From contig JAQGBZ010000226.1 of assembly GCA_034687125.1 (NCBI GenBank), positions 38,741-102,740 on the forward strand: DNA of 64,000 nt, in the 5' to 3' direction. The notes under the pieces are model-generated. The model was not told the origin of the DNA. It searched no databases and was given only the letters and a program-made list of their open reading frames with translations. This stretch comes from Neelides folsomi (lineage: Eukaryota > Arthropoda > Collembola > Neelipleona > Neelidae). The position numbers and the translations under genes were made by a program. Of this stretch, positions 22,754 to 61,440 are shown piece after piece (within the stretch, counting starts at the first letter, position 1; each line of letters starts with the position of its first letter).

Positions 22754-24195
22754 TTAGTCCTTTTGGGCTGCAGAGACGAGTTCGGCCTGTTTGGTCGCCT
22801 TTCTCTCTTCGCGTCTCTTCCTCGCCTCCTTCACCTTCGATCGTCGAGCCTCGGCTTGGTCACTAAAATAAAACATTGACAATTAGCAATTACATTCACA
22901 AATTAAACATCGTTTGGAATAAATCTCACTTGGATAAACAAGATAGGAATAAAGCAAATTAATATAAATCACACTGCGATAAATCAAATTAAAATAAACC
23001 TTATTTGAATAAATCACATAGAATAAATCATAATTGCAAATTAGGATGATGATAGTTATGATTTATGATGAATTAAGAATGTTAAACTTGAACTCACTTC
23101 AACATCTTGGAACGGGCATTTTCAGCCTTCTTCTTGTGGATGAATTCCATGAGGACTCGCTTGTTCTTGAATACGTTACCCTTCACCTTCATATAAAGTT
23201 CATGGTACAAGTGGCGATCGATCTTTTTTGCTTCCCTGAAATCAATAATTAAAGATTTTATTAATAATTAATGTCGCTTCATTTCATTAATATGATTATC
23301 CTCATTATCTCAAATAACTTTACATTCTTATTTACAGCTAATTGATTTAGATAATTATTATTGATTTTGACTATTATTTTATATTTAGAGCTTTTGAGGA
23401 AAATGAAGGATTTGAATTTTAATTAATAAGGACATTTGAATTATTTAGGACATTTGAATAAAAACTTAATTTTTCTGACCTGTATTTCTTAAGGAGACGC
23501 CTGAGGACTCTCATTCTCTTAATCCAAAGGGACTTTTCGGGCATCCGGGCATTTGCTGTTCCCTTCCTCTTTCCGGGCCCGCAATGCCTCCCTTTTCTTC
23601 TGGCCTCAGTGTTCGCACGAACTCGGGCTCTTGAATGGACAGCCACGGGCTTTTTGATAATAAGACCATCCTTTGCCAATTTCCTGATATATTGTCCTAT
23701 TAAAAATAAAATTCAATTATTTTCCATTCAATTAACACTATTTTCTATTTAATTAACATTAATTTAACATTAATCTTTTAATTAACATTTATCTCGAATT
23801 TAAATAATGATATCAATATCATTAAATGCCAATGGCGGCTTTGAATATTTTTATTAAACCGACTTATTCAAAATTGAAGTAGATTGAAAAATTTAACGAA
23901 TTCAGCCAATTAAATAAGCTAAATGTTTGTTAATCATAAGAAGCATAAAGTTAATTAAAGTTAATGAACATTAAAGCGGCTTTTGTGGCCATGATGTGAA
24001 AGTGAGCATACGTGAATTGGCAGCGGAAATTTCGGCCGACTCGTTGGGGTCAAGCCAAACCTTTTTCTTTCCGCATCTGAGGACTGCGGCCGCAAGGCGC
24101 TTCTGCAGCTTCAATGAACTACTACAATAACCATCAAAATTAGTTAATTAGGGTTTAATTGGAATTAAAAAGTGAAATAAAATTATTTACCTCAT
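22754..24195 (-). CDS. RpL19: Large ribosomal subunit protein eL19
   Basis: Five coding exons on the minus strand: 24195-24191, 24118-24012, 23696-23480, 23235-23098 and 22862-22754. They join in phase to 191 aa, slightly shorter than the usual 196-203 because the acidic tail is short. Conserved blocks include [48 protein letters not shown] and EARKRREER. It is a 60S subunit protein. The first coding exon is only five bases (ATGAG), as in other animals, where exon 1 of this gene holds little more than the ATG. Exon 2 has a tandem acceptor (TAGTAG, start 24118 or 24121), which would add or omit one Ser near the N-terminus. Confidence 0.95.
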
Positions 24196-24199
24196 TGTC

Positions 24200-25110
24200 G
24201 GCGATGGCAGAAAATCAGACTACGGAAAATGTCAAAACCTGGAACGGAGTTGGAAAGGGAATGAATGTGTCTGTGAAGTTCCACTCTTCTTTTCTTCACA
24301 CATTTTACAACACGCCCATCTTCACATGGAAAGCAAACTACGGCCGATCATGCAAGGTGGCGTTCAATACTCGCACCAATTATCTTAATGTCGCAATCTG
24401 CCCCGATGGTTCAAACTCGGCTTTTCTCAAATCCCAAAAAGTGAAAGCTGGGAAAGAAAAGAGGCAAAATGAGATGAATTGACTTCGGGTCAAATCGATG
24501 CACATCGGGGCGAAATGAGTTGGTTGCAAACGGGGCCAAATGAGACGATTCATTTTCTTCTTTTTGGTTTGGGAGCTTGCTATACCTATAACGAGGATTT
24601 TGGAAAATCAGAAGATTCGGCTCATTGAATAAAATGGAATAAAATGAATCAAAATGAATTAAAATTAATTAATTGTAGTTAAATACAATAAAATGGATCA
24701 AAATCGATTAAAATGGTTTAAAATGAAATAATATGGAATAAAATAAAATGAAAATAAGCTGCGATTTGGTTTTAAATGAATTTATTAATCATTTAACAAT
24801 ATAATTTAACCAATTTTAAGAAATTAAGAAATGTTGACCATAATTAATTAATTAAACTTTAATATAATATTAATTTAAGTATTAACAAAACAGTTTAATA
24901 ATTATAATTGAACTTTAACTTTAAGACACATTAAGACATCATAATAGAGTGAGATATTTGCTTAATGTAATGTAAATGCTTAGTATTGTAATAATGGTTA
25001 AATGCACCAGGCACTGTCCATTTAATTAACGTATTTATTTGAATTTTAATTGTATTTTATGTAATGAATTTAATGTTATTTAATGTTATTTAGTTAAAGA
25101 ATCTGAAAGA
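24200..25110. other. Spacer between RpL19 and the 25.1-26.4 kb gene, with a simple-repeat tract
   Basis: The RpL19 promoter must lie just right of 24195. From about 24620 to 24770 there is a degenerate tandem of AAAATGGAATA-like units. The plus-strand frame at 24159-24482 overlaps the RpL19 leader, has no family content and is not called. Confidence 0.4.
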
Positions 25111-26440
25111 TTAAAAATCTATTAGATTGAATGGCGGGAGAGACAACCTGTGTTTCTCATGCCTCAATGTTTTTTCATCTAGGAAACTTTTCAATTGTGT
25201 GAGTTCCGTTGTTGTGAAACTTCCTCTCGTATTTCTATAAAACCCCTCGTCCAATTTCCCTACCGAATCTTCATCTCTCAAAGATGAAGTTGGAAGCGAA
25301 GTGAAAGCTAAATTCGAACCACTAGGAAAACTATCACTTCCAATAGAATCAATAGAATCAATTAAACTAACATTTTCCGATGAAGAAATTGAAAATGAAA
25401 TTTCTTCATTTTCATTATTTTCAACCAAATTGTCATTTTCTTCACTTTTTGAATTCACCGCACTTTCAGTTGAAAATGACAAAATCTCAACTTTAGTTGA
25501 TAAATCATTTAAATCTTCATTTGAATCATTTGAATTTTCCGAATTTTTAACAATTTCAGTTGAATTTTCATAATTTGAATTTCCCAAATTTTCAGTTGAA
25601 TCATCGGTTTTAGTAATTTCGTCGTTTCCGAGAATAATTGAAGTATTTTGAATATCAACAAAGTCAGTTAAATTAAAATTAAGATTAAAATCCTCCGTGG
25701 AATTTGAATTAGTTGAATTTTCCTCTAACGGGAACGGAGTTGTAATAATTAAAGGTGAAATCGTCGTCGTCGTCGTCGGTGTCGAATTCTTCACTTTGTA
25801 AGTTTTTCTTAAAACGAGTCCTTCGGGGTTGATTCCTCCGTAAATGGCGACCATGCAGAATCCAAAGATGACGAAGAAGAGACAAAAGACGACGGCGATT
25901 GCGGACCTTCGTTGTCAAATTCGCTCGTTTTCTGCATCATATGGAGGGAGACTCCGTTGGTCCAAATCCTCAAATTCACCGATGAAGGAAGAATCGGAAT
26001 AATTGCGAGACGAAGACTCGAACCTTCGCCTTCATTCGTTTTTACACATTAATTACAATTAATCTGTGATAGGAATTTGAAGGTCAATTTACATTCAATT
26101 CCTCATGCTCTTTCATTTAAATGGATTTTGTACCTTTGTTGGGAACTTCGAGATCGGCTTGGTTGCCTTCCTGAACGGCCCTGGACACTGCGACCCTTTA
26201 ATTTAAATAACATTAAAATTGACACTTAAATCGACATTTAATTAAACTTAATTAGGCCAATAGAAATCTTTAAATAAATAGTTATAAATTTAACTTAATG
26301 ATTTAATTTTTTAAAACCCTTCGGCTGCTCCCAGAATCTTTTGAACTTGATGAATATCCCGTGTCTTGTCGATATTGAATACGATCGCTGCTCGCACCAG
26401 AACTACCAGAAATTTTATAAATCCCGGGATTTTCACTCAT
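25111..26440 (-). CDS. Unrecognised single-pass membrane protein gene with an in-frame TGA
   Basis: Three exons on the minus strand fit in phase: 26440-26318, 26195-26134 and 26023-25111. The first 97 codons (MSENPGIYKISGSS...) are Ser/Arg/Gly-rich, then acidic, and look like a cytoplasmic tail. A single TGA (25917-25915, followed by C) interrupts the frame. It is followed directly by QRRS and a strong transmembrane helix (AIAVVFCLFFVIFGFCMVAI). A 240-aa segment comes next, rich in Asn, Ser, Glu and Thr, with many N-glycosylation sequons (NST, NSS, NLT). With the TGA decoded, the product is about 365 aa and looks like a type II protein. Without it, there is a 97-aa soluble product. An internal ATG at 25854 lies late in the helix. 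The first ATG follows an acceptor (TTTTTTAG), so an upstream leader exon exists. No family is recognised. Confidence 0.55.
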
Positions 26441-26704
26441 CCTAAAAAACCATTTAGTTAATTACAATTTAATTATATTAATAAAATTTTTCTTAAATTT
26501 CAATAGATCTCTAAATTTTCTTTTAATATTAATTTTAATTATCATCCATATATTAAACTGTTCAATTTATTTAATTATAATTTAATTAAGGAATTTTATA
26601 TCAAATATAAAAAGATTATGTTACCAGAATCGTAAAAATCATAATATTATAATTAAGATTTAAAATTAAGATTTTAATGATTTTTAAAGTAATTATTGCA
26701 AATT

Positions 26705-31259
<4,555 letters not shown>

Positions 31260-56873: not shown

Positions 56874-58756
56874 CTAATATTTATTTTGTGTTTTAACCAA
56901 AATCGTAAAAATTATGGGGCAAGTCTTTTTCCTTCTTATTCTGAATAATGTAAATATAATTTTTAATATATATATTAAATGCCAATAATTGAAATTGTTA
57001 TAAAGATATTCCAAAAGAAAAATTGAACATGAAATTGTCAATAACAAGCAACTGATGATAAAAATCGGGAGAACTTTTCTAATTATTAAAGGTGTCGGGT
57101 TGTAAGTTTGCGGGGGTTTAAGTAAACTCCTAAAAGTGTTAATTTTATCAAAATTAATTCTATTCCATTTTTTAGCCTCATAATATCGCGTTTTATTTTG
57201 GAAATATAAACTTAATAAAGGCCTAATATTATTATAATCTTCTTCCCACAATTTTCAGATTCCTGACTCAAACAAACAAGCAAAAATAAATTTAAAATTT
57301 TCATTAAAATTATATTTAAAATTAAATGTAATAAAAGTAAACTCAAACTCATTATTATTTTTTAACATAGTCAAATCATTATTTTGAACTTCTCTTTCTT
57401 TGACCATATAAAATTTTCCTGGGAAATTAAATTCGAGTAATCTTTCATATGCAATTATTTTTTCAATTTTATCCAATAGGAAAAAATTTAAGGGAATTTT
57501 AAATTTTGCCAATGGATTGGCAAAATAGAAATAATTTTTTAAATCATCAATTACTATTCTTTCGTTTGGGATATGCGTAATCTTATTTTTAAATAAATCT
57601 AGAGTTTTTTATATTTGGGGGATTTCTGCAAACTCCCTAAAAATGTGTTATTAATGTGTTACTTAGATTTTATCAATATTTTCTAAATTTAAATATTCTG
57701 TTAATTTAGACATCTCCTGTTTATAAGTAAATGAATAAATTGAAATACTTCTAGTCGTATGTGCCAATTGTTCAAAAGTTTCAAAAGATTTAGGATTTTG
57801 ATCAAGAGCAATAATTGAAAATAATTTAAATTTATATGCAGAACTTACAATAAAAAGCATTAGAATTAAATTACTTATTAAGATTGTATATTTAAAGCCC
57901 ATAATTGGGATTTTATCGAAAGTCGAATTTCCTTGTTCGATCATTAGATGAAAAAGTGCAAAAGATAAATTGCCGATTTTTAAAGATTTAACGTCAATAA
58001 AATTAATTGAAAATAAATAATAAAATTTTAAAAGTAAAATGATGACAATTATTGAAATTAAAAATAAAACCCAGAAAAAGTAAAAGAAAATAATTGATCA
58101 CAGTTGATTTATCAATAAAGTTTGTAAAGGTAAAATAAAATTTAAATGTATATCGTACATATTTTGAAGCGTACATATAATAATGGAATTTTATTGCTTT
58201 ACTTCCGTACATATTATTACTAATAGATCCGATAATCACATTTGGAACAGAGTTAAAACTAATCAATTGTATTATATCAATTCTTTTAATTTCCGAATTA
58301 ATAATAAATGATACATTTAAAAGTTTAGATACAATTTCAACAATGTAAGCGTACATTATACTAGGAAAAGGAATTTCAACCTAGTCATTGTTTCTAGGAT
58401 AATAATAAGCGAAATTACTTATAAGCCCACCTTCAAAATCTTTCAATCCTTTTGATTTATATTTTAATTTCATTAAATCAGACATTTCTTTTTCAGGAAT
58501 ATTCCTTAAATTAATTAGGAATTCTACGAAAATATTAAATCGATTTTCAACAATGTTTAAGTTTGTTTTCTTTTTTGATAGTTTTAGTTTAGCGTTTAAT
58601 TCATTGTCAATTTTTCTTATAAAATTTCCCTGTATAGTGTTTAATATTAAAATCGTTTTTCTTTTGTCTGAACTCGTATCCGTTTTAATAAATCCTTTTC
58701 CTCTGAATACAATCAAAGGTATCTGGTCTGAATTTTCAGGTATGAATTTTTAAATA
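56874..58756 (-). pseudogene. Ionotropic receptor (iGluR-related chemoreceptor) pseudogene, N-terminally truncated
   Basis: Adjacent minus-strand frames line up in the order of an insect ionotropic receptor. The first segment (about 58716-58381) is the poorly conserved extracellular part. A ligand-binding S1 segment follows (PFPSIMYAYIVEIVSKLLN). Next come a first membrane helix (FFYFFWVLFLISIIVIILLL), then GNSTFDKIP and a helix ending in SSAYKFKLFSII, an S2 lobe (FETFEQLAHTTRSISIY) and a last helix, ISCLLLTISCSIFLLEYLY. Such receptors are ligand-gated channels of sensory neurons. The frame is broken by a TAG at 58383-58381, a frameshift near 58080-58130, a stop near 57665 and a TGA at 57257-57255. 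The 5' side runs straight into zinc-finger relic sequence, so the start is lost. Short introns might explain one break but not all. Confidence 0.6.
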
Positions 58757-61149: not shown

Positions 61150-61440
61150 ATTATTTGCATTTGTAAGTTTTTTCAGCAGGAGTTTTCATGTGACTCGTTA
61201 AATTTCCTTTTTGTCCAGATGAATATTTGCATATTTTGCACATGTAAGGTTTTTCTCCAGTATGAGTTCTCACGTGTCTCGTTAAATGTCCTTTCTGTCC
61301 AGATGAATATTTACATAGTTTCCACTTGTATGGTTTTTCTGTGTTGTGAGTTTTGATATGGTTAGGTGCATTTGTAAGGCTTTTCTCCAGTGGGAGTTCG
61401 AATATGGAGCTTTAAACTATTTCTACAACTAAAATACTTT
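61150..61440 (-). pseudogene. Decayed C2H2 zinc-finger array, copy 2
   Basis: Minus-strand fingers read KYSSGQKGHLTRHVRTHTGE, then KPYMCKICKYSSGQKGNLT with a final SHMKTPAEKTYKCK and stop. The left finger has Trp in place of its first Cys (KPYKWKLC), and the upstream finger ([14 protein letters not shown]) has lost a metal ligand and ends in a stop. It aligns with copy 1 together with its right flank, so the two are a segmental duplication. Confidence 0.7.

What the first reader, a model, noticed from the sequence alone, without database searches (positions are those of the whole stretch)
25111..26440. Single in-frame TGA between a cytoplasmic tail and its transmembrane helix
Three exons join in phase to 97 codons, then TGA followed by C, then in the same frame QRRS, a strong membrane helix and a 240-aa sequon-rich ectodomain. 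The frame is open for about 365 codons apart from this one stop. Read-through at UGA-C is known to be frequent in insects. If it happens here, it would switch the product between a soluble 97-aa form and a membrane protein. Selenocysteine, RNA editing, a TGG-to-TGA mutation in this individual, or a sequencing error are the alternatives.
Basis: partly seen in the sequence, partly recalled or inferred. Interest (0 to 1): 0.75.

Follow-up and report, generated by a model that had tools for sequence, protein, structure and literature searches.

The report
Membrane-protein gene with one internal stop
An animal gene for a single-pass membrane protein carries one in-frame stop codon between its tail and its membrane helix; the part beyond the stop still looks like working protein code, but DNA from one genome cannot tell whether the stop is bypassed (by read-through or splicing) or is a recent mutation or sequencing error.

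Summary
On the minus strand, a gene finder trained on four neighbouring genes and given no exon constraints returns three exons (26440-26318, 26195-26134, 26023-) that reach TGA 25917-25915 after 97 codons. The same frame then stays open for 267 codons to TAA 25113-25111. Reading the TGA as a neutral codon raises the model score by 15.2 nats. The post-TGA frame is coding: the longest open run in 500 shuffles was 159 codons. The 'sequon-rich' claim fails (8 seen, 7.4 expected).

How the stop is dealt with is unresolved. TGA-CAA-CGA fits the leaky CAR-NBA consensus, as do 12 of 2494 codon pairs by chance. A recent nonsense change or base error also fits. No SECIS match and no stable downstream hairpin were found. 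No relative was found, so conservation of the stop is untested.

My ranking: nonsense allele or error 0.36, read-through 0.28, splicing 0.23. Interest is modest.

The parts
26318..26440 (-). Exon 1, ATG at 26440-26438, 41 codons, MSENPGIYKISGSS...SGSSRR, phase 0 end
   Evidence: Gene finder; the only one of three frames without a stop (one rival frame has a single stop, at its first codon), codon score +6.5 vs off-frame. Donor GAAGG|GTTTTA weak, 1.85.
26196..26317 (-). Intron 1, 122 nt, GC 0.156
   Evidence: Acceptor 26195 scores 7.43; GC; donor+acceptor 9.28, inside the curated range 6.9-15.9.
26134..26195 (-). Exon 2, GRSVQGRSGRQPSRSRSSQQ, leaves 2 nt
   Evidence: Phase set by exon 1; this frame has Ser+Arg 0.55 vs 0.10 and 0.15 in the other frames, continuing exon 1 at 0.41. 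Against it: its codon score is -2.2 while one rival frame has +4.5.
25918..26023 (-). Exon 3 coding part before the stop (26029 is the alternative first base), FESSSRNYSDSSFIGEFEDLDQRSLPPYDAENERI
   Evidence: Codon score 5.34 vs off-frame; a second frame is open too and scores 3.41. The 26029-25907 segment has GC 0.463; 0 of 872 intron windows of 123 nt reach 0.46.
25915..25917 (-). In-frame TGA, codon 98 (codon 100 if exon 3 starts at 26029)
   Evidence: Read directly.
25909..25914 (-). Hexamer CAACGA after the stop, fits CAR-NBA
   Evidence: 12 of 2494 in-frame codon pairs in the curated exons fit the consensus; 15 of 2573 TGA trinucleotides in the window (this one included) are followed by it. 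Consensus from PMC4446449 and PMC4132726 passages.
25907..26133 (-). Alternative intron 2: exon 2 donor to acceptor CAACGAAG|GTCCGC, first exon base 25906, in phase, removes the TGA
   Evidence: Of 12 AGs with first exon base 26110-25851, the only one in phase with exon 2 that leaves no stop; donor+acceptor 3.23 vs 2.32 and 5.28 for the stop-keeping acceptors.
25843..25899 (-). Predicted transmembrane helix IAVVFCLFFVIFGFCMVAI
   Evidence: Kyte-Doolittle 19-residue mean 3.06; next best in the post-TGA piece 0.58.
25114..25842 (-). Remainder of the post-TGA frame, Ser/Asn/Thr/Glu-rich, inferred extracellular
   Evidence: Open frame, codon score +41.3 over 25815-25114; sequons at chance.
25111..25113 (-). 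Distal stop TAA
25034..25039 (-). AATAAA, candidate poly(A) signal
26761..29729 (-). Upstream neighbour on the same strand, TMEM26 gene (context)
   Evidence: Pfam PF09772 E = 1.4e-67 for joined exons, 1.8e-08 for a further upstream exon.

Best explanation
This is a three-exon gene whose intended product is a single-pass membrane protein of about 365 residues: a Ser/Arg-rich cytoplasmic tail, one helix and an Asn/Ser/Thr-rich outer part (topology inferred). Shown here: the exon structure is the best parse of the model used, the frame beyond the TGA is coding, and the TGA is in the sequence. Inferred: the TGA is most likely a recent single-base nonsense change in this individual or lineage, or a base error in the assembly, inside an otherwise intact gene. 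On this reading the allele makes only the 97-aa tail, and the intact distal frame has not had time to decay.
For: There is one point defect and no other stop or frameshift in the 365-codon frame. Codon preference changes little at the TGA: the synonymous log-ratio is 0.093 over the 96 codons before, 0.054 over the 267 after, and 0.606 over the first 33 after. An intact 267-codon frame is compatible with neutral drift up to about 2-9% divergence, depending on the indel rate assumed. A 97-aa Ser/Arg-rich tail is an unlikely main product (inference), and known read-through genes have long first ORFs (PMC5100048 passages).
Against: The context of the stop is unusually leaky: CAR-NBA fits 12 of 2494 in-frame codon pairs. 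An in-phase acceptor just after the stop gives an ordinary way round it; one scoring as well lies within 12 nt of 70 of 2110 codons. Either coincidence would be unexplained. The two halves of the ectodomain have low codon preference (0.027 and -0.071), which could also mean long-standing weak translation. The base rates behind the ranking are my estimate from general knowledge, not a call. No reads were available.
Confidence: 0.36

Rival explanations
1. Functional stop-codon read-through. A near-cognate tRNA reads UGA in the leaky context UGA-CAA-CGA in a fraction of passages, so one mRNA gives a 97-aa cytoplasmic product and a minor membrane-anchored product of about 365 residues.
For: Post-TGA frame is coding and intact. 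UGA-C is the least efficient UGA tetranucleotide in yeast and CAR-NBA raises read-through further (PMC4446449 passages); a CARYYA context gave about 15% read-through in a mammalian reporter (PMC4132726 passages). Read-through extensions with predicted membrane helices are known: eight in Drosophila (PMC3840789 passages). The stop lies in the last exon of the model, so exon-junction-dependent decay would not be expected (inference).
Against: No stable structure downstream: the 101 nt after the stop fold less stably than shuffles, z = +1.81, though only about 10% of D. melanogaster candidates have a predicted structure (PMC5100048 passages). The stricter CARYYA is not met. First ORF of 97 codons is short for this class. 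The abundant form is reported only in Pancrustacea and the host is unidentified. No step down in codon preference at the stop. No conservation evidence.
Confidence: 0.28
2. Ordinary splicing. The exon 2 donor at 26134 joins the in-phase acceptor at 25906 (or a 117-nt intron 26023-25907 is cut out of exon 3), giving SQQ-R-SAIAVVFC... with no stop. If both acceptors are used, alternative splicing switches between a 97-aa soluble form and the membrane form.
For: Of 12 AGs examined, 25906 is the only one in phase with exon 2 that leaves no stop to 25114. Donor+acceptor 3.23 lies between the two stop-keeping alternatives, 2.32 and 5.28. Donor 26024 plus acceptor 25906 is also in phase, 117 nt, sum 3.18, with CGAAGGT at both ends.
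Against: Acceptor 25906 scores -0.64, about the median of all AGs (54th percentile), without a T-rich tract. The removed segment has exon-like GC 0.463, reached by 0 of 872 intron windows, and scores as coding (+8.66 nats vs background). In-phase AGs of any score lie within 12 nt of 347 of 2110 codons. The gene finder preferred the stop-keeping exon. Better-scoring in-phase acceptors lie further on (25336, 3.85; 25321, 4.19) but would skip the helix.
Confidence: 0.23
3. Recoding of the UGA by selenocysteine insertion or by A-to-I editing to UGG.
For: The codon is UGA, and the A of the stop is paired in a 71-nt local fold (-16.8 kcal/mol), though this is not exceptional, z = -1.23.
Against: No Rfam match at gathering thresholds in the window and no SECIS among the 3 sub-threshold matches in 23000-26500; that Rfam holds SECIS models is recalled. 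The 5' neighbour of the A is G, which ADARs disfavour (recalled).
Confidence: 0.04
4. The gene model is wrong: the upstream exons belong to something else and the membrane frame starts from an exon not identified here.
For: Exon 3 acceptors are weak. Exon 3 is open in a second frame for 79 codons with a similar codon score, and exon 2's best-scoring frame is not the one used.
Against: The automatic parse returns the same three exons at three penalties. Ser/Arg content picks the frame used in exon 2. The first ATG after the stop is inside the helix.
Confidence: 0.09

Closest known systems
Stop-codon read-through genes of Drosophila and Anopheles (PMC5100048 and PMC3840789, passages and one section seen)
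   Same: Single in-frame stop, leaky context, coding-like second ORF, membrane helix in the extension (eight fly extensions have a predicted one).
   Different: No comparative or ribosome evidence here; first ORF is short and extension long, whereas those genes have long first ORFs; taxon unknown.
CARYYA / CAR-NBA type read-through signals (PMC4132726, PMC4446449, passages seen)
   Same: The six bases after the stop, CAACGA, fit CAR-NBA.
   Different: CAACGA misses the stricter CARYYA at its fifth base. In the passages seen, CAR-NBA acts in yeast and CARYYA in TMV, plant viruses and a mammalian reporter; nothing is known for this organism.
Alternative 3' splice sites and exitrons (introns inside coding exons; recalled)
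   Same: In-phase GT-AG segment of coding-like sequence, weak sites; one form is 117 nt, a multiple of three.
   Different: No transcript evidence; acceptor no better than an average AG.
Polymorphic nonsense alleles / young pseudogenes (recalled)
   Same: One point defect in an otherwise intact gene.
   Different: No reads or second haplotype to show a sense allele.

Membership tests
Functional stop-codon read-through gene | Coding-like second ORF in the frame of the first | tested here: met
   267 codons, codon score and shuffle test.
Functional stop-codon read-through gene | Leaky stop context | tested here: met
   UGA-C and CAR-NBA fit, consensus. A sequence match only, not a measured rate.
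Functional stop-codon read-through gene | Stop codon and extension conserved in related species | tested here: inconclusive
Functional stop-codon read-through gene | Not explained by alternative splicing around the stop | tested here: inconclusive
   In-phase acceptor 25906 could remove it; transcripts not available.
Functional stop-codon read-through gene | Ribosome footprints or peptides beyond the stop | not testable with these tools
   No expression data.
Selenoprotein | SECIS element in the 3' UTR | tested here: not met
   No SECIS match in the window or, at E up to 5, in 23000-26500; Rfam is not the most sensitive SECIS test.
Alternatively spliced gene (alternative 3' splice site) | Two usable acceptors in the same phase | tested here: inconclusive
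   In phase, similar weak scores; no transcript evidence.
Recent pseudogene / nonsense allele | Sense allele present in other individuals or relatives | not testable with these tools
   No reads, no own genome, no relatives.
Known protein family | Match to a family model or solved structure | tested here: not met
   Pfam, E up to 0.1: 0 families for either side of the stop. PDB, E up to 1: 0 for the post-TGA piece; the upstream piece was not searched there.

The most novel reading that the evidence does not exclude
A leaky UGA-CAA-CGA stop placed exactly between a cytoplasmic tail and its membrane helix works as a translational switch: one mRNA yields mostly a free 97-aa tail and a minor membrane-anchored form, so read-through rather than splicing decides whether the tail is tethered to the membrane.
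Probability: 0.2. Interest if true: 0.62.

Novelty: new member of a known kind. Interest (0 to 1): 0.36.

Why it matters
If the stop is read through, it would be an unusual case in which termination decides membrane tethering of a disordered-looking tail, with a short first ORF and a long extension, and it would be easy to test. If it is spliced out or a nonsense allele, it is ordinary, and it is a caution that single-genome read-through calls need transcripts and a second individual.

Tried and rejected
Own-genome search: none held. Relatives: the post-TGA piece and TMEM26 in viral contigs, the upstream piece in genome contigs: no relative by tblastn. Two self-trained gene finders ran away, fusing genes across the window; only the version with curated sites is used for the verdict. 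Fusion of TMEM26 to exon 1: none of 10 GT donors in its last exon has the needed phase; rejected. Start of the membrane form at an internal ATG: the first one is inside the helix; rejected. An intron 25979-25907 (73 nt): not among the in-phase pairs; rejected. UGA as a sense codon throughout: not supported; all 32 curated exons have a stop-free frame and use TGG 31 times, though they were chosen partly for openness. Sequon richness: rejected. A PDB search of the post-TGA piece gave nothing. Organism: not identified; an arthropod is likely, from recall of sequence character only.

Caveat on the training set: the 32 exons and 28 introns of four genes were picked by me from the parse (95 introns in its last training round); the rest were dropped. 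They were not checked against aligned homologues beyond Pfam hits to parts of them: TMEM26, MED17 and peroxidase and one RabGAP-TBC exon. The name EVI5 is recalled. Score ranges of the curated genes are partly circular, since the models were fitted to them; leave-one-out values are given where I computed them.

Full report
WHAT IS THERE. The finding lies on the minus strand. Translation of 26500-25050 shows, in one frame from exon 3 onward...SLPPYDAENERI, TGA, QRRSAIAVVFCLFFVIFGFCMVAIYGGINPEG... The TGA is at 25917-25915. The post-TGA frame runs 267 codons to TAA 25113-25111, and an AATAAA follows at 25039. In 500 dinucleotide shuffles of the 1101-nt region 26100-25000 the longest same-strand open run was 159 codons, median 73.

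GENE MODEL. I took 32 exons and 28 introns of four neighbouring minus-strand genes: TMEM26, MED17 and an animal haem peroxidase (Pfam hits to parts of each) and a RabGAP gene that I call EVI5 from recall (RabGAP-TBC). I chose them from an automatic parse. They gave a codon table of 2526 codons and splice-site matrices. With the TGA allowed as a neutral codon it continued into the distal frame and gained 15.2 nats at intron penalties of -8, -10 and -12. The comparison is with a standard parse that starts a second gene at the ATG inside the helix. Only one gene-start penalty was tried. At the loosest intron penalty it also proposed a short 3' intron near 25148-25102, which I do not credit.

STRENGTH OF EACH PIECE. 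Codon scores against off-frame exon sequence: exon 1 +6.5; exon 2 -2.2 in the frame used (another frame scores +4.5); exon 3 +5.3 in the frame used (another open frame +3.4); the 33 codons after the TGA -0.6; the 234 codons after those +41.3. For 35-codon windows the median is 6.8 in true frames (133 windows, part of the training set) and -2.9 off-frame (258 windows, stops not charged). Exon 2 therefore rests on phase and on Ser+Arg content (0.55 in the frame used, 0.10 and 0.15 in the others), not on codon score. The coding case for the helix segment rests on the open frame and the helix itself, not on its frame score. Exon 1's donor (1.85) and exon 3's acceptors (26023: 1.41; 26029: -1.55) are weak, below all 28 curated sites in fitted scores. 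With leave-one-out scores, 2 of 28 donors lie below 1.85 and 2 of 28 acceptors below 1.41.

THE SPLICING ROUTE. Of 12 AGs with first exon base between 26110 and 25851, one alone is in phase with the exon 2 donor and leaves no stop: 25906, CAACGAAG|GTCCGC. Joined, it gives ...RSSQQ-R-SAIAVVFC. Its donor+acceptor sum is 3.23, against 2.32 and 5.28 for the stop-keeping acceptors 26029 and 26023; leave-one-out sums of the curated introns start at 1.6, 3.5, 3.8. A second form, a 117-nt intron 26023-25907 bounded by CGAAGGT at both ends, is also in phase (3.18). By chance an in-phase AG lies within 12 nt of 347 of 2110 codons, and one scoring at least -0.64 of 70 of 2110. Better-scoring in-phase acceptors lie at 25336 and 25321 but would skip the helix. 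Against this route, the segment 26029-25907 has GC 0.463, while 0 of 872 intron windows of 123 nt reach 0.46 (maximum 0.43) and 761 exon windows have median 0.45; it also scores as coding. So the segment is probably exonic in at least one form. Constitutive removal is unlikely; alternative use is open.

THE READ-THROUGH ROUTE. The stop and the next six bases are TGA CAA CGA. CAR-NBA is a yeast read-through consensus, and UGA-C is the leakiest UGA tetranucleotide there (PMC4446449, passages; PMC4132726, passages). The consensus fits 12 of 2494 in-frame codon pairs in the curated exons and follows 15 of 2573 TGAs in the window, this one included; C follows 322 of 2573 TGAs. The motif was noticed after the fact, so these rates overstate the surprise. 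The stricter CARYYA is not met. The 101 nt downstream fold less stably than shuffles (z = +1.81). Eight Drosophila extensions carry predicted membrane helices, and UGA made up 25% of the events in that study (PMC3840789, passages). Abundant read-through was found in most insects tested and in Daphnia, but in no non-Pancrustacean tested, the centipede and an arachnid among them; T. castaneum and A. mellifera also fell short of that paper's definition (PMC5100048, section 17). Read-through candidates there have long first ORFs (passages), unlike the 97 codons here.

THE NONSENSE ROUTE. Of random substitutions in the 267 codons (transitions weighted twofold), 4.0% create a stop. With indels at 0, 0.1 or 0.2 per substitution, an intact frame has 5% survival at 9.3%, 3.5% or 2.1% neutral divergence. 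An intact frame therefore excludes an old, unbypassed stop but not a recent one. The synonymous log-ratio, selected versus mutational usage, is 0.093 before the stop and 0.054 after it: 0.606 over the first 33 codons, then 0.027 and -0.071 over the two ectodomain halves of 117. The four curated genes lie at 0.178-0.206, and their 100-codon windows go down to -0.046. There is no step down at the stop itself, but preference is low on both sides and lowest at the far end. This may reflect composition or weak expression.

OTHER RECODING. No Rfam family reached its gathering score in the window, and the three sub-threshold matches in 23000-26500 are not SECIS. Editing is disfavoured by the 5' G (recalled).

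FAMILY. Neither side of the stop matches Pfam at E 0.1 (the 99-codon version of the upstream side was used), and the post-TGA piece matches no PDB sequence at E 1. The outer part has 8 sequons in 240 residues against 7.37 expected from its composition (P = 0.46). That the N-terminus lies inside is inferred from the helix and the basic QRR before it.

VERDICT. I rank a recent nonsense allele or base error first (0.36) because the first ORF alone is an unlikely product and no other defect was found. Read-through is next (0.28), with splicing (0.23) close behind. The ranking leans on priors that I could not measure here. Literature searches made. They were for read-through biology; none was for this gene, which has no name. 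Of the papers, passages of four were seen, plus section 17 of PMC5100048 in full; the rest were search listings only.

Noticed in passing
26441 and 7839, minus strand: Two start codons (MSENPG... and an RRM protein MANTRLYVGG...) sit directly after an acceptor-like TAG|GATG (TTTTTTAG|GATG and CAATTAG|GATG), which suggests 5' UTR introns or spliced-leader trans-splicing.
   Followed up: no
26761 to 26441, minus strand: The last TMEM26 donor (26761, score 3.71) and the acceptor before exon 1 (26441, score 5.49) would splice to give a TMEM26 ending at a TGA that overlaps the next gene's ATG (ATGA).
   Followed up: partly
26048-25809, minus strand: A second frame is open for 79 codons across exon 3 and the helix region, with a codon score close to that of the frame used.
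   Followed up: partly
intron acceptors of the four curated genes: Acceptor tracts are T/A-rich and poor in C; these introns average 9% C and 14% G on the coding strand, and 8 of 28 acceptors are AAG.
   Followed up: no
57666-58749, minus strand: Frames that resemble an ionotropic-receptor-like membrane protein (recalled resemblance), broken over several frames; three pieces gave no Pfam match at E 0.1.
   Followed up: partly
61154-61411, minus strand: C2H2 zinc-finger array with the repeated motif CKYSSGQKGxLT (Pfam matches).
   Followed up: no
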